A DNA stretch of 47,610 bases from a virus. Below are positions 38,666 to 47,602 of this stretch, in pieces. Below the pieces are notes generated by a model that saw nothing but the letters and a program-made list of their open reading frames with translations, ran no database searches and had not been told where the DNA came from. The DNA is taken from the IMG/VR virus record IMGVR_UViG_3300044641_006018, positions 1 to 47,610 of that record; one strand, given 5' to 3'. Within the stretch, counting starts at the first letter, position 1. The number at the start of each line of letters is the position of its first letter. A program made the translations under genes and the position numbers.

Positions 38666-39067
38666 ATGAACTTAAATTATTCACTTATACCCTTAAATAA
38701 TACTTTTGAAAGTTGGGACTTTATTGATGACATTGAACATCTTTGGCCCACACTTTCCAATAGTTTCAATATTGTAACAAGTCCTAAATATAGTTTTACC
38801 CAAACTTTCGGATTTAAAGATAACAAAGATTCTTATAGTTTGGAAATTGAACTTCCGCGTTTTCGAAAAGAAAATATTAAAATTAGTTCTGAAAATAATA
38901 TGTTACATATTAGTGCAGAACAAGATAATCTGAAATTTTATCATTCAGTAAGTATTCCACCAACCTTAGACACAAATAGAATTGACGCTAAACTTGAACA
39001 TGGTGTGCTCACGATCTCCGCTCAAAAAGCCGAACAAGCAAAACATAAAACAATTGAAATTAAATAA
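38666..39067 (+). CDS. Small heat shock protein (Hsp20/alpha-crystallin)
   Basis: 133 residues. Residues about 45-130 are the alpha-crystallin domain: SYSLEIELPRFRKENIKISS, then HISAEQ, FYHSVSIPP and GVLTISAQ, with the C-terminal IEIK as the I-x-I/V anchor. This family holds unfolded proteins and is found in many cyanophages and other environmental phages. It is plus-strand, divergent from phoH, and has its own terminator. Possibly used in capsid or tail assembly. Confidence 0.9.
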   Translation: MNLNYSLIPLNNTFESWDFIDDIEHLWPTLSNSFNIVTSPKYSFTQTFGFKDNKDSYSLEIELPRFRKENIKISSENNMLHISAEQDNLKFYHSVSIPPTLDTNRIDAKLEHGVLTISAQKAEQAKHKTIEIK

Positions 39068-39076
39068 TGTATAATA

Positions 39077-39102
39077 AAAAGCCCCTCTTTCAAGGGGCTT
39101 TT
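39077..39102. terminator. Bidirectional terminator between Hsp20 and 54-residue gene
   Basis: Stem AAAAGCCCCT/AGGGGCTTTT (39077-39086 and 39093-39102) with CTTTCA loop; T-tracts on either strand. It ends Hsp20 on the plus strand and the converging 54-residue gene on the minus strand. Confidence 0.9.
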
Positions 39103-39107
39103 CTGTT

Positions 39108-39272
39108 TTACAGAAACGAAGCTAAAACATTTTTAGCCCAACGAAATAATTTGGAAAAAGTCTGAGCGACTTTTTTCAAATCTTTCCGCTGTATCGTTCC
39201 AGCATAGCCAATTGAACCATAAGGTCCAAAAACAATACCTAATTGATTTGTTTGATAATGATTTAAACTCAT
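39108..39272 (-). CDS. 54-residue protein with strong promoter and Shine-Dalgarno
   Basis: Short gene, found by reading the gap. The sequence begins MSLNHYQTNQLGIVFGPYGS and ends with a basic amphipathic helix (KKVAQTFSKLFRWAKNVLAS). A full AAAGGAGGTG ends 3 nt before the ATG, and a sigma70-like promoter with 17-bp spacer lies upstream. This is unlike nearly all other genes of the AT-rich part, so it is probably an early or constitutively expressed gene. Function unknown; a small host-takeover or membrane-associated peptide is a guess. Confidence 0.75.
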   Translation of the reverse strand: MSLNHYQTNQLGIVFGPYGSIGYAGTIQRKDLKKVAQTFSKLFRWAKNVLASFL

Positions 39273-39293
39273 AAGCACCTCCTTTCATACTAT

Positions 39294-39322
39294 ATATTAC
39301 AGCAAAAGATGGGCCAATTCAA
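39294..39322 (-). promoter_or_regulatory. Sigma70-like promoter of the 54-residue gene
   Basis: Minus strand: -35 TTGAAT (39317-39322), 17-bp spacer, -10 TAATAT (39294-39299), then the AAAGGAGG ribosome site and ATG at 39272. Confidence 0.75.
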
Positions 39323-39338
39323 GTGACGATATTGTAAT
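39323..39338. promoter_or_regulatory. 16-bp near-palindromic operator, copy A
   Basis: GTGACGATATTGTAAT on the plus strand, abutting the -35 box. Aligns with copies at 41786-41801 and 43671-43686. Confidence 0.5.
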
Positions 39339-39379
39339 ATTTTAAAAAAGTTGATGTGATATTAGAATAAGTATATTAA

Positions 39380-41038
39380 TTATGGCACGGCTGGGTAATT
39401 AGTTGTTTTTACATATGTGGATGTAATTTTTGCCCCAACAAAATTATTAGTCCATGTTGCTAGCCATGGCCATTGAACATCATCATAGGAAATAGCAAAA
39501 GTTCTTCCAACTAAATCGTTTGTATATGCCCAGAAAGCACCATTCCACCTTACTTGCTCATCTCCGTAACTATATGTTTCTTTTCCATATGGTAGGTAAC
39601 CAATCGGAGCCATTTTCCTCCAGCTTTGTCCACCAATAAAACCAGAATTTTCGTCACTTTCGGTATTATAAAGCGGGCCATCCATTAATACCCATGCTGT
39701 AACATCTGGTTCTAGCGCATTATTTGGATCGTCATAACCGATTCCAAGAATTAATTGCGGTTTTAAAAATTTAATTTCTATTTGTGGCGCTGGGGATAAA
39801 ACTTTATTGGTATAAACCAGGGCTGCGCCAGCGTCTGTTCCGCCATCGCTATCCTTAATGCCACCAACCATTACAATAGTTCCGTCAACATTGGTCGCAA
39901 CGCTCGATCCAAAATTATCCGCACTATCATTGTTACCAGTAAGTTTTTGTTTGAATTGCCAGGTAGTATTTATATTTCCAGTGTATATAGATGCTGATCC
40001 CCTGGCTGGCGCATCATTTACTCCACCTACTATTAAAGTAGTTCCATTTGAATTTATATCAACACTTGTTCCGAGTTGATCAAATGGACTATCACCCATT
40101 AATTTTTGTTTAAATGTCCATCCATTGATTAAATTACCTGTATAAATTAATACGCCCCCCTCATCTACATTAAAATCATCAAAAGGTCCGCCCATAATTA
40201 TAATAGATCCATTTGCATCTGTTGCAACACTTTCGCCATAACGAGATGTAGCACTACCACTACCAGTAAGCGTTTGTTTAAGCACCCATTGAGATGAAAA
40301 ATCTCCTGTGTAAATTAAAGCACCACCTAAAAATCTTGACCTTCCTATCAATAACATACTACCACTTTCATTCATGTCCATACTTATTCCAAATTCTGCG
40401 CTATTTACCGAACCAATAATTCTTTGCTTTAATTGCCATCCATTTATAGCATTTCCAGTGTATAATGCAACTACCCCAGCATTTATTCCTCCTTCGTCAT
40501 TGTTCGGACCTGACATTGCTAAAATATTAGCATTATTATTAATTGCAACACTTGCCCCCATAGAATCACCAGCAGATCCTGTTAATTTTTGTTTTAACTG
40601 CCAGCCGTTTATAGCATTGCCCGTATATACAAATGCCGCGCCAGCACCACCCCCATTACCACTATCAGTGTTACCACCTATCATTAAAACAGACCCATCA
40701 TTATTCATTTTAGCGCTCACTCCAAATTGATCATTAGCACTATCGCCAGTCAATTTTTGTTTTAATTGCCATCCATTTATTGCACTACCCGTATAAATAA
40801 GTGCCGCACCAGCATTTGTTCCGCCATCATCATCTAATCTTGATGACATTAATAAAATAGTTCCAGAAGAATTCATAGAGACTATCTTACCAAATTGATC
40901 ACCAGCAGTATCACCTGTCAACTTTTGTTTAACGAAATAATTTTCTACGCCAGATTCTATAAACTTTTGTGTTTTTTGAGCAAATTTAATTTCTGATTCG
41001 GGGGCGTATAGGGATTTCTTTCCAAATATAGTGTCCAT
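39380..41038 (-). CDS. Seven-bladed beta-propeller virion protein (FG-GAP-like)
   Basis: 552 residues. Seven imperfect repeats of about 50-55 residues run from residue 35 to 430, each starting KQKLTGD-x-DQFG, then a G-T-I-L-x-x-G strand and ending YTGNAINGWQ. This pattern matches FG-GAP/integrin-like propellers, and seven blades suit a closed ring. The final 120 residues (WVLMDGPLYN, GGQSWRKM, DDVQWPWLATW) form a Trp-rich domain that may bind sugar or attach to the fibre. Probably an adhesin. A GTGTAA box is 10 nt upstream. Confidence 0.75.
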   Translation of the reverse strand: MDTIFGKKSLYAPESEIKFAQKTQKFIESGVENYFVKQKLTGDTAGDQFGKIVSMNSSGTILLMSSRLDDDGGTNAGAALIYTGSAINGWQLKQKLTGDSANDQFGVSAKMNNDGSVLMIGGNTDSGNGGGAGAAFVYTGNAINGWQLKQKLTGSAGDSMGASVAINNNANILAMSGPNNDEGGINAGVVALYTGNAINGWQLKQRIIGSVNSAEFGISMDMNESGSMLLIGRSRFLGGALIYTGDFSSQWVLKQTLTGSGSATSRYGESVATDANGSIIIMGGPFDDFNVDEGGVLIYTGNLINGWTFKQKLMGDSPFDQLGTSVDINSNGTTLIVGGVNDAPARGSASIYTGNINTTWQFKQKLTGNNDSADNFGSSVATNVDGTIVMVGGIKDSDGGTDAGAALVYTNKVLSPAPQIEIKFLKPQLILGIGYDDPNNALEPDVTAWVLMDGPLYNTESDENSGFIGGQSWRKMAPIGYLPYGKETYSYGDEQVRWNGAFWAYTNDLVGRTFAISYDDVQWPWLATWTNNFVGAKITSTYVKTTNYPAVP

Positions 41039-41048
41039 TACAGCTTAA

Positions 41049-41054
41049 TTACAC
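41049..41054 (-). promoter_or_regulatory. GTGTAA box before propeller gene
   Basis: TAGTGTAA on the minus strand, 10 nt before the ATG at 41038. Confidence 0.45.
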
Positions 41055-41069
41055 TATTTTTTAAAAAAA

Positions 41070-41720
41070 CTAAACAAATATAGTTTCGCGTTCCGAGGGT
41101 TTAACCACATCTGGTAATCCAAAAATCATATGCCAAATATATTCAAAAACCCTGGCAATTAAAAAATTATCATAATTTTCATTTATAGATAATTCATACC
41201 ATTTTTGAAAAGTTTCTAATGGAATTTTTTCTATAAGATAACTTTGAACTACAAATTGCGCGCAACATAAATGTCTTACATAATTCGGACAATCTCTTTG
41301 AAAATGTGGTTTAAAATATTCGTCCCAAAGTTCGCATAGTAAATCCATAGCGGGATTATGCCCCAAAATTCTATCATCATAATCGGTTGTATTTAAATTC
41401 ACATATGGATTCTTTTTTATAAAATTTGGCGACTCATTTAATTTTTGTTGCCATCTGATAATATTACGATTATTTTGATGCCACGCGGCTTCGTCGCCAT
41501 ATAAAAACATTATACTTTTTGGCAAATTATTATAATTATTACAAATAAATTTTAAGTAAGTAGATGCTTCTAATCCGTGAAATGGGACATCGGTACCTTT
41601 TCTATATAATATAATTGGAACATTAAAAAAATTCTTATATAACCAATCTCGACTTAATAAATCTTCTTCAAATAATTGTGAGACAATTATAAAATCAGTG
41701 TCTTTACTCCATGTATTCAT
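41070..41720 (-). CDS. DUF3431-like protein, glycosyltransferase-type
   Basis: 216 residues. The core FHGLEASTYLKFICNNYNNL then PKSIMFLYGDEAAWHQNN matches the pattern of DUF3431 proteins (G-x-E-x-x-T-Y-L-x-x-I-x-x-N-Y-x-x-L-P, then F-L-x-x-x-x-x-A-W-H), a family mostly seen in fungi and thought to be related to sugar-transfer enzymes. C-terminal VFEYIWHMIFGLP also fits. Activity is unproven. It lies between two virion adhesin genes and may modify host or virion glycans. Upstream is a sigma70-like promoter and operator copy C. Confidence 0.6.
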   Translation of the reverse strand: MNTWSKDTDFIIVSQLFEEDLLSRDWLYKNFFNVPIILYRKGTDVPFHGLEASTYLKFICNNYNNLPKSIMFLYGDEAAWHQNNRNIIRWQQKLNESPNFIKKNPYVNLNTTDYDDRILGHNPAMDLLCELWDEYFKPHFQRDCPNYVRHLCCAQFVVQSYLIEKIPLETFQKWYELSINENYDNFLIARVFEYIWHMIFGLPDVVKPSERETIFV

Positions 41721-41751
41721 ATTTAATTATATGAAATAAAAAAAATTTTTA

Positions 41752-41781
41752 AAATTAAAATTATAGAAAAAAAGGTGTCAA
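41752..41781 (-). promoter_or_regulatory. Possible promoter of DUF3431-like gene
   Basis: Minus strand: TTGACA at 41776-41781, then 18 bp to TAATTT. TATAAT occurs in the spacer but only 10 bp from TTGACA, so the true -10 box is uncertain. Confidence 0.35.
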
Positions 41782-41785
41782 AAAA

Positions 41786-41801
41786 GTTACAATATTGTTA
41801 C
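41786..41801. promoter_or_regulatory. 16-bp near-palindromic operator, copy C
   Basis: GTTACAATATTGTTAC, the most symmetrical copy; its complement reads GTAACAATATTGTAAC. It overlaps the stop of the upstream gene and lies 4 nt from TTGACA. Confidence 0.5.
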
Positions 41802-43204
41802 CTAGTTTCGCGCCATTGTAAACTAGCAAAAGTATTACTTGCATTAGTGCCAATTCCAGATCCAATTATAACAAAAACATTACTATCCGTGCTATCAATA
41901 TTTTGACTAATATATCCTCTTTTTGCGCTTGATAAATTTGCTATTTGAGATTGTGCGCTAAATTTTCCAGCACCCTGACCGCCAGCAATGCAATATCCTG
42001 CGTCTACTAGCATTCCACTTGTAAAATTAACGCTTGTTGCACTAATATTATATTGAACAACGCTATCATCATTTGCGCTTACCCAAGAACCACCAACTAT
42101 TTGCCCCGTGCTTGGAATTCTCCAAAGCTCATAAGTAATTGCATCTGTTACCGTAAAAATATTGGCCATGTTTGCTCTGACAACACTACGGTTTGGTTTT
42201 CCGTAATATCCAGTTTTTAATGCTATCGCAACTAAAGGAAGTTGACTGGTTGTAGTTACAGATCTTGCCACTGTATTTCTTGCTGAAAAATCTACACCTG
42301 CTTCATTGTAGCCACCCTCACTAATAACCGTTGCACAAATTTGATCCATCGTATCTGTACCAACTGCGCTGCTATAATTTCTAATTTCACATCTGACTGG
42401 AAGATTTGGATTACTCCAATAAACGGCGGGTTTATTATTACTATTATAGAATTCGTGAGCAATCACGCTTTCGCCATTATGAACAAACCCAGCGCGTACT
42501 CTTCCAACCCCAAGCCATTGAAAATCTGCTGTAAATAATTGAGTTTTAGTACGGTCTAAATTAAAAAGGGATGGTCCACTTCCATTGCATTTATCAACGT
42601 TCCAATTGTTTTGGGCGATTCTTTCTTCCGATACAAATCCAGAAACATCACCTCTTAAAACAAGTGATAAAGTCCCATCGCCGCTTTGTTCAAAAAAGAT
42701 TCCATTACGGTCATCAAAAAGACCAATTCTTTTATTTGTGCCATTACGATATCCTGTAAAATTAAAACTTTGGAAAGTTAATTCACTTTTACCTGGCATG
42801 TAGTGATGATACATGCGGCTTTGGTGGATGGTAAAATCATTTGCGCCAGTCCCAACTTGCAATATTGCTTTCGCTTGATTAATATTGAATGATACAGAAG
42901 CATTCGCCCCACTAGTTTTAGTTAATAGTTCTGTTTCTTCTCCATAAACATGGGAATAGTCAGCGAGGGTAAATGGGTTAGATATTCTTTGGCGACCAAA
43001 TGCATCTATTTGCGCTGATTGACTTGAAAAATTAGTTACATTAACATCAACTGGATTGATTACAGATACGTTACCAGTTACGTTTTGAACTGCTGGGAAA
43101 TTGTTTACTAAAACTCCATCAACAACCGAAACTTGCACAGGTGTATTTTGACCTTCTTGTTCGGCTTTATGTATTGTTCGGATCACTGATATACCATTAC
43201 ACAT
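41798..43204 (-). CDS. Virion structural protein with AFGRQRISNPF motif
   Basis: 468 residues from the ATG at 43204 (MCNGISVIRT). A start 20 codons upstream would overlap the plus-strand Cys-rich gene, and that leader (Lys-rich, low complexity) looks non-coding. IDAFGRQRISNPFTLADYSH near residue 85 is a hallmark of a structural family I associate with environmental phages. The rest is beta-rich (VGTGANDFTIHQSRMYHHYM, GLFDDRNGIFFEQSGDG). Likely a tail or capsid surface protein; the exact role is unknown. Confidence 0.7.
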   Translation of the reverse strand: MCNGISVIRTIHKAEQEGQNTPVQVSVVDGVLVNNFPAVQNVTGNVSVINPVDVNVTNFSSQSAQIDAFGRQRISNPFTLADYSHVYGEETELLTKTSGANASVSFNINQAKAILQVGTGANDFTIHQSRMYHHYMPGKSELTFQSFNFTGYRNGTNKRIGLFDDRNGIFFEQSGDGTLSLVLRGDVSGFVSEERIAQNNWNVDKCNGSGPSLFNLDRTKTQLFTADFQWLGVGRVRAGFVHNGESVIAHEFYNSNNKPAVYWSNPNLPVRCEIRNYSSAVGTDTMDQICATVISEGGYNEAGVDFSARNTVARSVTTTSQLPLVAIALKTGYYGKPNRSVVRANMANIFTVTDAITYELWRIPSTGQIVGGSWVSANDDSVVQYNISATSVNFTSGMLVDAGYCIAGGQGAGKFSAQSQIANLSSAKRGYISQNIDSTDSNVFVIIGSGIGTNASNTFASLQWRETR

Positions 43205-43243
43205 TTTTTTATTCTTTTTTTTATATATTAATATAATATTTAT

Positions 43244-43402
43244 ATGAAACAGTGTCAAATGCACATATCCCCAGCGCCCGAGTGTCTTGTTCCATGCCCA
43301 GAAGAAGCTACCGAAATACTAACATTAGGTAACCATACAGACATGTTCCTTTGTAAAGAACACTACAAGTCTTTTAATAATTTTCACAAACAAGAAGATT
43401 AA
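43244..43402 (+). CDS. 52-residue Cys/His-rich protein
   Basis: Short plus-strand gene found by reading the gap, divergent from the virion gene with 39 nt between. Four Cys and three His (C4, H7, C14, C18, H31, C37, H40) in C-x2-H and C-x2-H pairs at either end suggest a treble-clef-like zinc site (KQCQMHIS near the start, FLCKEHYKSF near the end). No Shine-Dalgarno; a terminator follows. Function unknown. Confidence 0.65.
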   Translation: MKQCQMHISPAPECLVPCPEEATEILTLGNHTDMFLCKEHYKSFNNFHKQED

Positions 43403-43416
43403 ATTAAAATTAAGAA

Positions 43417-43443
43417 AAAACCCCCTCATAAAGAAGGGGTTTT
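43417..43443 (+). terminator. Terminator after Cys/His-rich gene
   Basis: AAAACCCC/GGGGTTTT arms (43417-43424 and 43436-43443) with an 11-base loop. The T-tail is short (TTTTATAA), so it is a moderate terminator. Confidence 0.7.
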
Positions 43444-43492
43444 ATAACCAATGGATTAATTCCAAACGTGTCAACACACATTTTGAGTTAGT

Positions 43493-43618
43493 CTACTGTA
43501 TAAATTTATTAATAAATTTATCTATTTTCTCATAATGAGCCATAACAATGACGGCTTGACTAAATAAGACAACGGCTAAACCAATCATTTCAATTTTACT
43601 AGATAATAAATTTTTCAT
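43493..43618 (-). CDS. 41-residue membrane protein with strong promoter and Shine-Dalgarno
   Basis: Short gene found by reading the gap. One hydrophobic helix (MIGLAVVLFSQAVIVMAHY) between a short N-terminus and a basic C-terminus. AAAGGAGGT ends 6 nt before the ATG; the promoter and operator arrangement is the same as for the 54-residue gene. It may be an early-expressed membrane peptide, for example for superinfection exclusion, but no motif proves this. Confidence 0.7.
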   Translation of the reverse strand: MKNLLSSKIEMIGLAVVLFSQAVIVMAHYEKIDKFINKFIQ

Positions 43619-43641
43619 ATATTTACCTCCTTTCCTATTAC

Positions 43642-43670
43642 ATATTACAATAATATAAAGATTTAATCAA
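43642..43670 (-). promoter_or_regulatory. Sigma70-like promoter of the 41-residue gene
   Basis: Minus strand: -35 TTGATT (43665-43670), 17-bp spacer, -10 TAATAT (43642-43647). Spacing and hexamers closely match those at 39294-39322. Confidence 0.75.
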
Positions 43671-43686
43671 GTTACAATCCTGTCAC
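43671..43686. promoter_or_regulatory. 16-bp near-palindromic operator, copy B
   Basis: GTTACAATCCTGTCAC, abutting the -35 box exactly as copy A does. The centre CC breaks symmetry. Confidence 0.5.
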
Positions 43687-44034
43687 CATTAAAGGTTAAA
43701 TTAGAATATAGAAAAAAATAAAGCCCCCGAATTTTTTAGATTTGATCGTTATTATTTATTATCTTTTACTCTTAAAGTTTTAAAAAAGGGTAGGGGGTGT
43801 ACATATATAGAAGAATAGGGATATTTATATATAAACATAGTAATATGTATATAGGAATATATAGAATATAGACTTATAAGAATAATGGGTTAAATTAAAT
43901 TAATTAAAATAAAAGTCCAGGAGATTGAAATTTCACCCCCCCGGCACCTAAAATTCAAACGCCTGTTCGAATTTTTTCAAAAATGGGGAGGGGTTTGTCA
44001 ACAAAAATAGTTTTCAGAACCGCAAAAAAATCCC
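43687..44034. other. Gene-free AT-rich stretch before the small-gene block
   Basis: No coding frame with support. Contains short AT-rich segments (ATATATAG, TATGTATATAGG), a G-run GTAGGGGGTGT near 43790, a C-run near 43935, and from 43952 the sequence AATTCAAACGCCTGTT, which recurs at 47112. From about 43997 begins the upstream part of the leaderless promoter unit. Base composition changes visibly near 43.95 kb. It could be a contig joint or a control region. Confidence 0.4.
43952..43967. repeat. 16-bp direct repeat, left copy
   Basis: AATTCAAACGCCTGTT, identical to 47112-47127. A related AAACGCC lies at 47099. Confidence 0.6.
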
Positions 44035-44062
44035 TTGCGTTTTGCGTGATCTGTGGTAGAGT
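44035..44062 (+). promoter_or_regulatory. Leaderless-type promoter P1
   Basis: TTGCGT (44035-44040), 16-bp spacer, TAGAGT (44057-44062), then 6 nt to ATG at 44069. An A-tract (GCAAAAAAATCCC) directly upstream may be an UP element. Confidence 0.65.
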
Positions 44063-44068
44063 GTAGAC

Positions 44069-44251
44069 ATGAAGAAGAAATACTACACCAGCACAGAGAT
44101 CCTCGAATACGCCGAACAGAATAAGGCGATATGCACCTTCGCCAGCGTTAGCCTCCGTGTGTTCAAAGGATGGACGGCGAAAGGTTCTTACGAGGTCAAA
44201 TTCCACAGGATTGAACCCTGTGTCTGGCAGAAAAAAATCGTCAGAAAATAA
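44069..44251 (+). CDS. 60-residue basic protein, first of small-gene block
   Basis: Starts MKKKYYTSTEILEYAEQNKA; strong basic character, with one helix and then beta strands (SLRVFKGW, SYEVKFHRIEP). No family recognised. No Shine-Dalgarno; the -10 box ends 6 nt before the ATG, indicating a leaderless message. Higher GC than the late genes. A short gap leads to P2. Confidence 0.6.
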   Translation: MKKKYYTSTEILEYAEQNKAICTFASVSLRVFKGWTAKGSYEVKFHRIEPCVWQKKIVRK

Positions 44252-44260
44252 AAAAATCCC

Positions 44261-44288
44261 TTGACTCTCACCGCATCTCTGCTATCTT
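44261..44288 (+). promoter_or_regulatory. Leaderless-type promoter P2
   Basis: TTGACT (44261-44266), 16-bp spacer, TATCTT (44283-44288), 6 nt, ATG at 44295. It has the same AAAAAAATCCC upstream as P1, P3 and P5. Confidence 0.65.
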
Positions 44289-44294
44289 AAATAT

Positions 44295-44558
44295 ATGAAA
44301 GAAATAGACCAAACCTTCACCTTCAACGGAAACAACTTTCACCTCTGGGCGGAAGTCTACGTTGACTCTGACTACAACTTCGAAGCCGTGCAATTGCACA
44401 TCTTCAACGAAGACACTAAAACCGATGCGGTTAGCTTCGAAGCCGAATCCGTTCACTATCCTCTCGCCTTGGATCGTATCATCGAAGATGAGGCTTTCCT
44501 TGAGAAAGTCGAAAGCGTCATGCTTAACGAAGTCGATGAAGGCATTTTGGCTTGGTAA
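44295..44558 (+). CDS. 87-residue acidic protein
   Basis: Mostly acidic with aromatics (HLWAEVYVDSDYNFEAVQLH), probable beta sheet followed by a helix (LALDRIIEDEAFLEKVESVM). Not recognised. First gene of a two-gene unit; the next start is 5 nt after its stop. The other overlapping frames are shadows: this frame starts exactly at the ATG set by P2. Confidence 0.6.
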   Translation: MKEIDQTFTFNGNNFHLWAEVYVDSDYNFEAVQLHIFNEDTKTDAVSFEAESVHYPLALDRIIEDEAFLEKVESVMLNEVDEGILAW

Positions 44559-44562
44559 CACT

Positions 44563-44745
44563 ATGACAAAGATCCCTCTCGACATAGACACCACTCCACT
44601 TGCTCACGCAATCGAGCGCAGTAAGCGCAAGACTATGACAAAGCACGTTATGACAAAGGCACTCATCAATGTCATAGAAGGCGCGCTCGTCGGTCTCGCG
44701 GCTGTGGTCGCGTGGGCTATGCTGGTCACGCTCTTTTCTCTGTAA
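44563..44745 (+). CDS. 60-residue membrane protein sharing IDTxPLAxAIERS motif
   Basis: Start MTKIPLDIDTTPLAHAIERS, a middle KxMTK basic region, then a hydrophobic helix at 40-60 (GALVGLAAVVAWAMLVTLFS). The N-terminal IDT-x-PLA-x-AIERS-x-RKT is shared with the 51-residue gene at 45845-46000. Both sit at the end of an operon just before a hairpin module. Start chosen as the first ATG after the upstream stop. Function unknown. Confidence 0.6.
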   Translation: MTKIPLDIDTTPLAHAIERSKRKTMTKHVMTKALINVIEGALVGLAAVVAWAMLVTLFSL

Positions 44746-44748
44746 GTT

Positions 44749-44937
44749 GTTAATATTCAACGACTTACGCGGACGCGCCCCGCCGCGCAGCGTAAGTCCT
44801 TGACAATGAACGACTTACGCAATACGCTGTTCAAGAAGCGTGCCAACTTGCAGAATAAAACGCCCGTTTGAAAAATCATCAACAAAAATAATTTGCACAA
44901 TCGCAAAAAAATCCCTTGCGTTTTGCATGATCTGTGC
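44749..44937 (+). repeat. Hairpin module M1 plus upstream control region
   Basis: About 190 bp: TNAATATTCAACG, stem GACTTACGC/GCGTAAGTC (44762-44770 and 44790-44798) around a GC-rich loop, then a second CGACTTACGC (44811-44820), GCGTGCCAACTTG, TCAACAAAAATA and the A-tract leading to P3. The stem has no T-tract, so it is not a classic terminator. It contains no plausible ORF. Aligns with 46001-46172 and 47227-47396. Confidence 0.7.
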
Positions 44938-44943
44938 TACTCT
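44916..44943 (+). promoter_or_regulatory. Leaderless-type promoter P3
   Basis: TTGCGT (44916-44921), 16-bp spacer, TACTCT (44938-44943), 6 nt, ATG at 44950. Confidence 0.65.
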
Positions 44944-44949
44944 GTATGT

Positions 44950-45303
44950 ATGAAAGATAAAGAAAACACCACGTTCAACGTCAAAGGAACCCTCTGCACG
45001 CTAGTCGTCTCGCAAGATGATGATGGCGACTGCATCAAACTCTGGCACGATCTCGTCAACGTCAACACCAACGAGGTTGTCGCAACTCTCGGCTGGTCGC
45101 CTTACTCCTGCCCTACGGATGCAGAGGTTCAGCAACTCATTGACCTCGGCTTGCCCGATGGCTTGCGCTGGGCTAACTTCGACCCCTACTCTGGCTTTAA
45201 CTTCGACAGCGAAATGCTGGCGAAATACCTCGCTGGCTACGAGGGTGTCAATGGTGGAAAAATGGAACTGACCTTCCGTAAGCGTCCCGCCTTGGCCGCA
45301 TAA
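44950..45303 (+). CDS. 117-residue protein of small-gene block
   Basis: Start MKDKENTTFNVKGTLCTLVV, fixed by P3; an earlier start at 44893 would lie upstream of the promoter. Alternating strands, acidic middle (SQDDDGDCIKLWHDLV), then helix (FDSEMLAKYLAGYEG). No family recognised. Largest gene of the block, alone between P3 and P4. Confidence 0.6.
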   Translation: MKDKENTTFNVKGTLCTLVVSQDDDGDCIKLWHDLVNVNTNEVVATLGWSPYSCPTDAEVQQLIDLGLPDGLRWANFDPYSGFNFDSEMLAKYLAGYEGVNGGKMELTFRKRPALAA

Positions 45304-45311
45304 AATAATCC

Positions 45312-45340
45312 TTGCGTTCACTCTCAACCTGTTCTATTCT
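45312..45340 (+). promoter_or_regulatory. Leaderless-type promoter P4
   Basis: TTGCGT (45312-45317), 17-bp spacer, TATTCT (45335-45340), 6 nt, ATG at 45347. Confidence 0.6.
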
Positions 45341-45346
45341 TTAACC

Positions 45347-45616
45347 ATGAAAGACATCGACACCTACATCACCAACGCCCACTCCGACGACTTCGCTACC
45401 GAGGCGGAGGAGCGCGCCAACCTCAACACGTTCGCGGCCGAACTCGCCAACGAGGACGATTGCGCTGACGGCAATGATGTCAGTGAATACGCTGACGAAC
45501 GCGATGAGCCTTGGGATGGCTTCCGCCACGATGTCGAAGCCGATGCTGATACGCTCGCAAGTGCGGGTTATGGCACGGACGAGGACTATGGCTACTACGG
45601 GGAGGAATCACTATGA
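45347..45616 (+). CDS. 89-residue highly acidic protein
   Basis: 28 of 89 residues are Asp or Glu against four Lys/Arg, evenly spread (ELANEDDCADGNDVSEYADE). Such composition is typical of DNA-mimic proteins (Ocr-type) that block restriction or repair enzymes, but composition alone cannot prove that. First gene of a three-gene operon; its TGA overlaps the next ATG (ATGA). Confidence 0.6.
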   Translation: MKDIDTYITNAHSDDFATEAEERANLNTFAAELANEDDCADGNDVSEYADERDEPWDGFRHDVEADADTLASAGYGTDEDYGYYGEESL

Positions 45617-45843
45617 CACAACAAGACGGCATCATTAAATCACTACAAACTCTCATCAAGCATGAGAAGGCTATGCAGGAGCAAGATAGTGACATAAACG
45701 AACTGAAATTTTCAGTCTCTAAAGTTTTAGAAACTCTTTGCACTCATCATGAGAAAATGGAAATGTTATGTGCTGCAAATATCTTTCTTGCAAATGAGCT
45801 TCACGCACTGCGTAATCATAAATTCGCACAAGGAGTCAACTAA
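45613..45843 (+). CDS. 76-residue coiled-coil protein
   Basis: Helical with heptad Leu/Ile (IIKSLQTLIKHEKAMQEQ, FSVSKVLETLCTHHEKM). GGGGAGG precedes the ATG and the start overlaps the upstream stop, unlike the leaderless first genes. Could form oligomers or bind a host protein. No family recognised. Confidence 0.6.
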   Translation: MTQQDGIIKSLQTLIKHEKAMQEQDSDINELKFSVSKVLETLCTHHEKMEMLCAANIFLANELHALRNHKFAQGVN

Positions 45844-45844
45844 C

Positions 45845-46000
45845 ATGAGCAGAATAATTATGACAATCGACACGCGCCCACTCGCGCGCGCGATTGAGCG
45901 AAGCGTTCGCAAGACAACTTGCAAGCCTTCGTTCGCCATGCGTGTCAAGAAAAAATTCGCGCGCAAGGCAAAGTTTTTTCGCGGTTGGTCTGATCAGTAA
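45845..46000 (+). CDS. 51-residue very basic protein with IDTxPLAxAIERS motif
   Basis: MSRIIMTIDTRPLARAIERS then a Lys/Arg-rich tail (RVKKKFARKAKFFRGW). N-terminus matches the 60-residue membrane protein at 44563; the tail differs. AAGGAG lies 9 nt upstream. Nucleic-acid binding is plausible from charge. It ends the operon just before module M2. Confidence 0.6.
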   Translation: MSRIIMTIDTRPLARAIERSVRKTTCKPSFAMRVKKKFARKAKFFRGWSDQ

Positions 46001-46172
46001 AGCGTTGAATATCAACGACTTACGGCGGCGCGCCCCGCCGCGCGGCGTAAGTGCTTGAAAATAAACGACTTACGCAACATGCTACGCAGATGCCGTGCCA
46101 ACTCGCGTGTCAAGCGAAAAAAATAAAAAAATAAAAAATAAAAAAATCCCTTGCGTTTTTCTGGTTCTGTGA
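46001..46172 (+). repeat. Hairpin module M2
   Basis: AATATCAACGACTTACG, GC-rich hairpin (ACTTACG/CGTAAGT, 46018-46024 and 46046-46052), a second ACGACTTACGC (46065-46075), GCCGTGCCAACTCG and an A-rich stretch into P5. Same layout as M1. No ORF of its own. Confidence 0.7.
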
Positions 46173-46178
46173 TACCTT
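46151..46178 (+). promoter_or_regulatory. Leaderless-type promoter P5
   Basis: TTGCGT (46151-46156), 16-bp spacer, TACCTT (46173-46178), 6 nt, ATG at 46185. Confidence 0.65.
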
Positions 46179-46184
46179 GAATAC

Positions 46185-46364
46185 ATGGAAAAGAAAACAC
46201 CACAAAAGGGCCAACTCTGGGTGAGTGGCAATACAGTCTACCGCGTTATCCGTAACGAAGGAGACAAGACCCATGCCCATAATCATGGGAAGATGGGCCT
46301 GTTCTACACGCGCAATCTGAAGATTGCGACCCCTTCCCAAGTCGCAGAATACTTGGGAAAATAA
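46185..46364 (+). CDS. 59-residue protein of small-gene block
   Basis: Too short for most gene finders; the frame begins at the ATG set by P5: MEKKTPQKGQLWVSGNTVYR. His-rich middle (KTHAHNHGK) and C-terminal FYTRNLKIATPSQV then a helix. A strand-rich small-domain pattern. Not recognised. Confidence 0.6.
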   Translation: MEKKTPQKGQLWVSGNTVYRVIRNEGDKTHAHNHGKMGLFYTRNLKIATPSQVAEYLGK

Positions 46365-46368
46365 TCTC

Positions 46369-46397
46369 TTGACCCTAACCACAAAATAAACCACAAT
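46369..46397 (+). promoter_or_regulatory. Leaderless-type promoter P6 (weak -10)
   Basis: TTGACC (46369-46374), 17-bp spacer, CACAAT (46392-46397), 6 nt, ATG at 46404. The spacing is right but the -10 hexamer is poor. Confidence 0.4.
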
Positions 46398-46403
46398 AAC
46401 AAC

Positions 46404-46619
46404 ATGACAAAAAAACAATTCACCGCCATCGCTCACATCTTGGGCAAGCGTCTCGCTGAAAAACAACACGCTCCCATCGGGGAATATGAAGCTGTCGAAG
46501 TCCTCGCTTTTGACTTGGCGAAATACTTTGCCGAACAAAATCCTCGTTTCGACGAAGGTCGCTTTTTGGAAGCTGTCTCTAATCACACCCCTAACATTCC
46601 CGTGGGATCATATAAATAA
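46404..46619 (+). CDS. 71-residue phage protein with NPRFDxxRFLxA motif
   Basis: AIAHILGKRLAEK, VLAFDLAKYFAEQNPRFDEG and RFLEAVS reproduce a small helical family common in tailed phages (AIA...DYF..DNPRFDR..FL.A), mostly early-region genes of unknown function. This is the best recognisable family in the block and supports a phage origin for it. First gene of a five-gene run to 47226. Confidence 0.7.
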   Translation: MTKKQFTAIAHILGKRLAEKQHAPIGEYEAVEVLAFDLAKYFAEQNPRFDEGRFLEAVSNHTPNIPVGSYK

Positions 46620-46622
46620 ACT

Positions 46623-46709
46623 ATGTCAATCTGGGAACCACTCTTTTTCCTTTGCATCCTTCCATCAGCAGTGGGCTTTCTCCTTCTCTGGCTCGACTCA
46701 AAAAACTAA
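46623..46709 (+). CDS. 28-residue membrane peptide
   Basis: Very short; MSIWEPLFFLCILPSAVGFL then LLLWLDSKN. A single hydrophobic helix, placed 3 nt after the preceding stop and 4 nt before the next start. Real translation is likely from packing but not certain. Confidence 0.45.
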   Translation: MSIWEPLFFLCILPSAVGFLLLWLDSKN

Positions 46710-46713
46710 TCTC

Positions 46714-46893
46714 ATGAAAAAATACATCACATTCGACCGCATTGCCTACGCAATGTCCCTCTCCACATTCATCTTCATCGCGGTAACGCTTTGCGCTGCT
46801 TGCATTGACTTGCAAAACAGAACCAGCAAGAACCAAAAGCAAATGCAGGAAGAAGTCCGCGCAATGTTTGCCAGCATCGAGAAACCTCTATGA
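46714..46893 (+). CDS. 59-residue single-span membrane protein
   Basis: One hydrophobic helix at about 12-33 (AMSLSTFIFIAVTLCAACID), then a charged helical tail (SKNQKQMQEEVRAMFASI) that may be a coiled coil. Start is the first ATG after the 28-residue gene. Its TGA overlaps the next ATG. Confidence 0.55.
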   Translation: MKKYITFDRIAYAMSLSTFIFIAVTLCAACIDLQNRTSKNQKQMQEEVRAMFASIEKPL

Positions 46894-47078
46894 TCACACC
46901 CAACATCAAAAAAGCCCTTGAATCAAATGGCGTCCGCTTCTTTGCAAAAGACTTTCTCATGGAAGGTATGCGAAAAGACTGCGTTGACGCTGTGCATGAC
47001 GCGCAACTTGTTTACGAGTTGCTAAAAGAACGCATGGAAAAAATTCTCGGCACCGACGAAGAAGAATCGGTGTCATAA
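46890..47078 (+). CDS. 62-residue helical protein
   Basis: MITPNIKKALESNGVRFFAK and CVDAVHDAQLVYELLKERME form two helices; acidic C-terminus. ATGA overlap with the gene before it. No family recognised. Confidence 0.55.
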   Translation: MITPNIKKALESNGVRFFAKDFLMEGMRKDCVDAVHDAQLVYELLKERMEKILGTDEEESVS

Positions 47079-47082
47079 TACT

Positions 47083-47226
47083 ATGACAAACATAATCAAA
47101 CGCCTGCTCGGAATTCAAACGCCTGTTTCACTACTCGCCTTGAGCCTGTGGCACTACAACACCTCGACATGGCTTGAGCGCATCGAGGCAAACGGCCAGA
47201 TCAGCGACTACCTCGTAAAGCGTTAA
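47083..47226 (+). CDS. 47-residue protein before module M3
   Basis: MTNIIKRLLGIQTPVSLLAL then SLWHYNTSTWLERIEANGQI. It contains the right copy of the 16-bp direct repeat (encoding GIQTPV), so that repeat may be incidental to coding. Start context ACTATGACAAA matches those of 44563 and 45613. Ends directly before M3. Confidence 0.5.
   Translation: MTNIIKRLLGIQTPVSLLALSLWHYNTSTWLERIEANGQISDYLVKR
47112..47127. repeat. 16-bp direct repeat, right copy
   Basis: Identical to 43952-43967; lies within the 47-residue gene. Confidence 0.6.
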
Positions 47227-47396
47227 GTATCAACGACTTACGGCGGGGCGCCCCCCGCGCCAGCGTAAGTGCTTGAATATCAGCACTTTATGCATTATGA
47301 CATTCATGAAGCGTGCCAAGTTGAAAAGTTTTTTTTGTCAACAAAAATACTTTGCAGAACCGCAAAACTTTTCATTGCATTTTTGCGCGGCTGTGC
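47227..47396 (+). repeat. Hairpin module M3
   Basis: GTATCAACGACTTACG, stem ACTTACG/CGTAAGT (47236-47242 and 47264-47270) around a GC-rich core with GGGGCGCCCC, a diverged CAGCACTTTATG in place of the second direct copy, GCGTGCCAAGTTG, then GTCAACAAAAATAC and P7. The second half is the most diverged of the three modules. Confidence 0.7.
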
Positions 47397-47402
47397 TATT
47401 CT
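47375..47402 (+). promoter_or_regulatory. Leaderless-type promoter P7
   Basis: TTGCAT (47375-47380), 16-bp spacer, TATTCT (47397-47402), 6 nt, ATG at 47409. Confidence 0.65.
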
Positions 47403-47408
47403 TTAAGC

Positions 47409-47564
47409 ATGACAGAGAAAGAAAAACAAATCCAAGCCCTCGAGGAAAAACTCGAACAAATCGCAAACGACTTGATTGATCCTATGCTGGACGATCAAAC
47501 GACTGTTTTACTTCGCGCAATGAGAAAGGTGCGCGAAAAAATAAACGCTCTCGTCGCAGAATAA
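47409..47564 (+). CDS. 51-residue coiled-coil protein
   Basis: MTEKEKQIQALEEKLEQIAN then LLRAMRKVREKINALVAE; two amphipathic helices with a short acidic turn (DPMLDDQTT). Start fixed by P7; a start at 47352 lies inside the promoter. Function unknown. Confidence 0.55.
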   Translation: MTEKEKQIQALEEKLEQIANDLIDPMLDDQTTVLLRAMRKVREKINALVAE

Positions 47565-47567
47565 TCC

Positions 47568-47596
47568 TTGCAACCGAACCCAAAATCATAGAAAAT
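47568..47596 (+). promoter_or_regulatory. Leaderless-type promoter P8
   Basis: TTGCAA (47568-47573), 17-bp spacer, GAAAAT (47591-47596), 6 nt, ATG at 47603. Geometry matches the others; the -10 hexamer is weak. Confidence 0.4.
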
Positions 47597-47602
47597 AAAA
47601 TC

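What the first reader, a model, noticed from the sequence alone, without database searches (positions are those of the whole stretch)
39294..43686. Shared 16-bp operator beside early-type promoters
GTGACGATATTGTAAT (39323), GTTACAATATTGTTAC (41786) and GTTACAATCCTGTCAC (43671) are near-palindromic. Copies A and B abut the -35 box in the same register; both control tiny genes with full Shine-Dalgarno sites. Three copies suggest a phage or host regulator that controls early genes, even though no repressor gene is in the window.
Basis: seen in the sequence. Interest (0 to 1): 0.6.

Follow-up and report, generated by a model that had tools for sequence, protein, structure and literature searches.

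The report
Host-regulator-like box before phage promoters
An uncultured phage lineage keeps a 16-base control box directly upstream of the promoters of a few tiny genes; the box matches the published binding site of the actinobacterial nitrogen regulator GlnR, so the phage probably lets a host regulator switch these genes on, which is untested.

Summary
The three 16-bp sites are real and not chance. A composite of box plus -10 occurs 3 times in the window against a mean of 0.01 in 300 shuffles.

Relatives (PhoH 70-100% identical) carry the same box in the same register, its end on the -35 and 20-21 bp before TGTAAT. It drives three unrelated tiny-gene families. Between families the box is 75% identical, the flank 30% and the spacer 44%. 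Whole relatives hold one or two copies.

The box looks near-palindromic because GTnAC is self-complementary, but fits an 11-bp direct repeat better: AC-n9-AC in 14 of 14, with a stronger promoter-proximal half. That equals the actinomycete GlnR box, GTnAC-n6-GTnAC (PMC3087709, PMC10704036).

Four of 14 promoters lost a recognisable -35 and none lost the box, so an activator is likelier than a repressor. None of six DNA-binding families was found in the window or seven relatives. The clade shows a leaderless-mRNA peak, common in actinobacteria.

Best explanation: a site for a host OmpR-family activator, most likely GlnR-type. Host unknown, binding untested. Closest precedent: cyanophage use of host PhoB and NtcA.

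The parts
39323..39338 (-). Box A, ATTAC-n6-GTCAC on the promoter strand
   Evidence: same box in L005, L006, L169, L176
39294..39322 (-). Promoter A: -35 TTGAAT (39317-39322), 17-bp spacer, -10 TAATAT (39294-39299)
   Evidence: read directly; aligned with relatives
39108..39272 (-). gamma gene, 54 aa, Shine-Dalgarno AAAGGAGG just upstream (about 39278-39285)
   Evidence: family of 49 viral loci
39077..39102 (.). Terminator-like hairpin between HSP20 and the gamma gene, usable on both strands
41786..41801 (-). Box B, GTAAC-n6-GTAAC on the promoter strand
   Evidence: identical in L005, L006, L017, L018
41760..41785 (-). Promoter B: TTTTTT in the -35 register, TATAAT (41760-41765) 20 bp after the box; a TTGACA lies 4 bp further down
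41070..41720 (-). DUF3431 gene, 216 aa, at the place where relatives carry the 33-aa beta gene
   Evidence: PF11913, E 1.8e-28
43671..43686 (-). Box C, GTGAC-n6-GTAAC on the promoter strand
   Evidence: same box in L009, L011
43642..43670 (-). Promoter C: -35 TTGATT (43665-43670), 17-bp spacer, -10 TAATAT (43642-43647)
   Evidence: read directly
43493..43618 (-). alpha gene, 41 aa with one likely membrane span, Shine-Dalgarno GAAAGGAGG upstream (about 43626-43634)
43417..43443 (.). Terminator-like hairpin after the alpha gene, usable on both strands

Best explanation
The three sites are one conserved transcription-factor box, nnnAC-n6-GTmAC (AC-n9-AC), that ends at the -35 of sigma70-type promoters (centre about -43). 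The promoters belong to single-gene cassettes set among late genes of a large, probably virulent phage. The box is most likely a two-unit, 11-bp direct-repeat site for a host OmpR/PhoB-family response regulator that activates transcription by contacting RNA polymerase next to sigma, most likely the nitrogen regulator GlnR of an actinobacterial host or a close functional equivalent. Under that regulator's inducing condition (nitrogen stress, if GlnR) the infected cell would make these tiny proteins, two families of which look membrane-spanning. Shown: the box, its register, its conservation and retention, its restriction to these promoters. Inferred: activation, host origin of the regulator, GlnR, an actinobacterial host.
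For: Same box and register in relatives found through PhoH, not through the box. All 22 matches of an IMG/VR scan that specified only the -10, the Shine-Dalgarno start and the proximal half also carry AC at the right place in the distal half; 0 of 9 out-of-clade chance matches do. Identity between gene families: box 0.75, flank 0.30, spacer 0.44; AC-n9-AC 14 of 14; proximal half 0.91, distal half 0.67; -35 lost in 4 of 14, box in none. Published GlnR features agree: GTnAC-n6-GTnAC, AC-n9-AC with critical adenines, second repeat more conserved and fourth-position A irreplaceable. Mean match to the GlnR consensus 0.91 (background 0.25) against 0.80 (background 0.44) for WalR. No HTH_3, CRP, OmpR-C, TetR, RHH or MarR domain in the window or seven relatives. 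Leaderless-promoter peak in the clade, a trait frequent in Actinobacteria.
Against: Host unknown; no WhiB in the clade; tail, PhoH and terminase similarities point weakly to cyanophages and Firmicutes phages. The 14 sites share ancestry, so they are not independent. Unrelated phages with Firmicutes-like promoters carry GTAAC-n6-GTAAC in the same place, so the box need not mean GlnR. Most of the G005 Pfam families were not displayed, so a phage regulator of another fold is not excluded. Box prediction without binding data has failed before (PMC10976474).
Confidence: 0.45

Rival explanations
1. A host OmpR-family response regulator other than GlnR (for example WalR, PhoP or an unnamed one) binds the 11-bp direct repeat and activates the promoters.
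For: Direct repeat and position are general for the family; site B and several relatives match WalR at 11 of 12 positions; GTAACCAAATTGTAAC abuts strong promoters in phages G021 and G022 whose leader lengths are Shine-Dalgarno-like.
Against: C in the middle of the proximal half (GTCAC) in sites such as A and G004 is outside WalR's TGTWAH, and fit over all sites is lower; leaderless peak not Firmicutes-like.
Confidence: 0.25
2. A phage-encoded regulator binds the box, as an activator or as a repressor of early cassettes late in infection.
For: The box is confined to phage promoters of this clade; the clade encodes two sigma-like factors and many proteins of unknown function.
Against: Six common DNA-binding families absent; a dedicated regulator for one promoter per genome would be costly; one box is kept in each genome while the gene behind it changes.
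Confidence: 0.18
3. A dimeric repressor of host or phage binds the near-palindrome and shuts the promoters.
For: Positions 6 and 11 vary as purine and pyrimidine, and most boxes match as inverted repeats at 5-7 of 8 pairs.
Against: Box lies upstream of the -35 rather than over the promoter; four promoters kept the box after losing the -35; halves are unequal.
Confidence: 0.07
4. No regulator: the similarity is only shared ancestry of a copied promoter cassette.
For: Promoters look copied between cassettes: shared -10 and Shine-Dalgarno, GGCAC in the spacer of many beta and gamma promoters.
Against: Flank and much of the spacer have diverged towards random while the box stayed at 0.75, and the proximal half is more conserved than the -35 (0.91 against 0.65).
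Confidence: 0.05

Closest known systems
GlnR box of actinomycetes (GTnAC-n6-GTnAC; PMC3087709, PMC3662644, PMC10704036)
   Same: 16-bp length, 5+6+5 layout, AC-n9-AC, more conserved downstream half, single box per promoter as commonest form in Streptomyces venezuelae
   Different: Found in phage promoters of an unknown host; no binding data; distal half looser; box ends at the -35
Cyanophage promoters with host Pho boxes and NtcA sites (PMC10976474, PMC3037559)
   Same: Phage genes apparently wired to a host nutrient-response regulator
   Different: Different box, probably different host phylum; targets are tiny proteins rather than metabolic genes; here only sequence evidence
PeSL mobile cassettes of T4-type phages (cited in PMC4503421)
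   Same: Host-like promoter and stem-loop around small exchangeable genes
   Different: An added regulator box; exchange by recombination not tested
WalR/YycF box of Firmicutes (TGTWAH-N5-TGTWAH; PMC9210968)
   Same: OmpR-family direct repeat with 11-bp period
   Different: Consensus met less well; promoter signature of the clade is not Firmicutes-like

Membership tests
GlnR box | GTnAC-n6-GTnAC (S. venezuelae consensus) | tested here: met
   Sites B and C 8 of 8, site A 7 of 8; mean 0.91 over 14 sites
GlnR box | AC-n9-AC with critical adenines | tested here: met
   14 of 14 sites
GlnR box | Second repeat more conserved than the first | tested here: met
   0.91 against 0.67 between gene families
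GlnR box | Host has GlnR | not testable with these tools
   Host unknown; leaderless peak fits Actinobacteria only indirectly; no WhiB
GlnR box | GlnR binds it and regulates the gene | not testable with these tools
   Needs gel shift and reporter assay
WalR box | TGTWAH-N5-TGTWAH | tested here: inconclusive
   7 to 11 of 12 per site, mean 0.80 against background 0.44; none complete
NtcA site of cyanobacteria | GTA-N8-TAC | tested here: not met
   Read directly in boxes A, B and C on both strands; consensus from PMC3037559
Sigma54 promoter | TGGCAC-N5-TTGC at -24/-12 | tested here: not met
   Present in a subset of beta and gamma promoters, absent from alpha promoters and from site B
Phage lysogeny operator | Repressor gene of the HTH_3 type in the genome | tested here: not met
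   No match in eight records, positive controls worked
PeSL cassette | Early promoter plus stem-loop flanking exchanged small genes | tested here: inconclusive
   Promoters and terminator-like hairpins at the alpha and gamma genes; gene behind site B differs between relatives; recombination not tested

The most novel reading that the evidence does not exclude
Large freshwater-type phages of actinobacteria wire exchangeable tiny-protein genes to the host's nitrogen-stress regulator GlnR, a case of phage promoters driven by GlnR for which I found no earlier report in the library searched.
Probability: 0.33. Interest if true: 0.65.

Novelty: new variant of a known kind. Interest (0 to 1): 0.45.

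Why it matters
Phage use of host nutrient regulators is documented for cyanobacteria. A GlnR-type box in a phage clade of unknown host would extend it to another phylum, give a testable host prediction for an uncultured phage group, and link unstudied tiny phage proteins to the nutrient state of the cell.

Tried and rejected
Palindromic repressor operator: the direct repeat and retention without a -35 fit better. Sigma54 promoter: only in a subset. NtcA: wrong register. HLR1/RpaB of cyanobacteria: from memory its repeats are 10 bp apart, here 11. The 38763 copy: inside HSP20 coding sequence, no promoter. Searches for isolated relatives or a host: only distant hits. Gamma family in bacterial genomes: one weak hit in a Rikenellaceae MAG contig, not followed. 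A bulk IMG/VR scan for GTAAC-n6-GTAACTTGA gave no more stretches than the n5 control (109 against at least 120), although more of the examined ones were intergenic with a -10 (11 of 112 against 2 of 83); the n6 set includes clade members and several copies per contig. Accessions KU886271, KU886273 and NC_001335 are not held. A literature search for the 16-mer letters gave chance strings; the consensus form led to GlnR. Structure prediction was not used: 33-54 aa proteins with few homologues would give little.

Full report
What was checked. The window is a 47.6-kb virus record of a large phage with a terminase-like gene, ERCC4 nuclease, a sigma70 region 2 protein, PhoH, HSP20, an endolysin and a predicted structural gene. 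A fourth look-alike at 38763 is inside the HSP20 gene. The sites exceed shuffles: exact GTnAC-n6-GTnAC 2 against 0.17, box plus -10 composite 3 against 0.01. The composite was shaped on the known sites, so its number is illustrative; the GTnAC pattern comes from the literature.

Relatives. PhoH found 80 loci, 34 of them at 70% identity or more. Boxes recur there upstream of the same kind of promoter: box, -35, 16-17-bp spacer, TAATAT preceded by TG, then a near-perfect Shine-Dalgarno. Seven relatives of 57 to 178 kb were fetched and scanned with a profile built from the sites: promoter boxes score 18 to 23 bits, everything else 17 or below. Six hold one such box, G007 two, the window three. 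These records are linear and may be incomplete.

Test of the distal half. A scan of IMG/VR for the -10, the start of the Shine-Dalgarno and the promoter-proximal half gave 21 stretches with 22 matches; every one also has AC at the right place in the distal half, which the pattern did not ask for. A second scan for half-site, -35 and -10 without Shine-Dalgarno returned nine matches outside the clade; none has the distal half.

What the promoters drive. Three unrelated tiny-gene families: alpha (41 aa) and beta (33 aa), each with one likely membrane span read from the sequence, and gamma (52-78 aa). Every homologue found in the PhoH relatives has the box. Gamma also occurs in other phages (49 loci), many without the box, so the box belongs to this phage clade and not to gamma as such. 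L186 and L188 keep a diverged box. At site B the window has a DUF3431 gene where L017 and L018 have beta.

Selection on the box. Comparing promoters of different gene families, identity is 0.75 in the box, 0.30 in the 18 bp before it (random 0.28), 0.65 in the -35, 0.44 in the spacer and 0.88 in the -10. Four of 14 promoters lack TTG in the -35 register; none lacks the box. This favours an activator, although a shifted -35 in site B (TTGACA 4 bp downstream) cannot be excluded.

Which regulator. GTnAC is self-complementary, so two copies look palindromic and direct at once. The unequal halves, the 11-bp period and AC at the next 11-bp step in 6 of 14 promoters (related promoters, not independent) favour an OmpR-type direct repeat; on its own does not separate the two symmetries cleanly. 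The consensus form, searched in the literature, led to GlnR. Published features agree: GTnAC-n6-GTnAC (PMC3087709), AC-n9-AC with critical adenines (PMC3662644), second 11-nt repeat more conserved and fourth-position A irreplaceable (PMC10704036). WalR (TGTWAH-N5-TGTWAH, PMC9210968) fits less well.

Host or phage regulator. HTH_3, CRP, OmpR-C, TetR, RHH and MarR families are absent from the window and seven relatives, while the control genomes ring. A Pfam survey of 121 proteins of G005 displays only 25 of 97 families, so other regulators are not excluded.

Host. Unknown. Promoters of the clade show a peak of TAnnnT exactly 6 nt before ATG (24 in G003, 27 in G004, 22 in G005; weaker in G002 and G006), which implies leaderless transcripts. 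Stretches of a cyanophage, a Bacillus phage, an Acidobacteria phage, a Microcystis phage and a Streptomyces phage show no such peak. The Streptomyces phage is an actinophage, so absence does not exclude an actinobacterial host. Leaderless genes average 19% in Actinobacteria and 4% in Firmicutes, with high values also in Deinococcus-Thermus, Aquificae and Acidobacteria (PMC3160421). No WhiB was found, although isolated Nanopelagicales phages carry it (PMC10202952).

Box in other phages. GTAACCAAATTGTAAC or a near copy abuts strong TTGAC promoters in two other long phages (two in G021, four in G022), and GTAAC-n6-GTAAC does so three times in G023. G021 and G022 show leader lengths near 30 nt. 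So box-before-promoter is not unique to the clade, and the inference to GlnR is weakened, because those phages may use another OmpR-family regulator.

Precedent and caution. Cyanophages carry predicted NtcA sites (PMC3037559) and genes under host PhoBR with gel-shift evidence; the same study found box prediction alone unreliable (PMC10976474). This report has no binding data and should be read in that light.

Noticed in passing
L031 9090, L033 9139, L034 2515, L035 8656: Box-like GTTACAATATTGAGAC (L033: GTTACAATAATGAGAC) about 11 bp farther from a TGTAATAT -10, before a metallophosphoesterase-like gene that starts at or near the transcript start.
   Followed up: partly
window 44000-47600: GC-richer right end (44-51% against about 33%) with small genes behind TTGCGT/TTGACT-16/17-TAnnnT-6 nt-ATG promoters, which implies leaderless mRNAs; the spacing peak recurs in all seven relatives.
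   Followed up: partly
window 44746-44810, 46002-46075, 47222-47290: Recurrent intergenic element with inverted GTAAGT-type arms (CGACTTACG...CGTAAG) around a GC-rich core between the right-end genes.
   Followed up: no
window 39108-39272; L184-L232: The gamma family (GIVYGPYGSIGY core, about 41-78 aa) occurs in 49 viral loci, mostly behind a near-perfect Shine-Dalgarno; no match in isolated phages.
   Followed up: partly
L483 (G022), L484 (G021), L485 (G023): Other phages with several GTAAC-n6-GTAAC boxes abutting TTGAC promoters, next to many early promoters without the box.
   Followed up: partly
window 41070-41720: A DUF3431 gene stands behind site B where relatives have the 33-aa beta gene; no tblastn match in isolated phages at E 0.001.
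   Followed up: no
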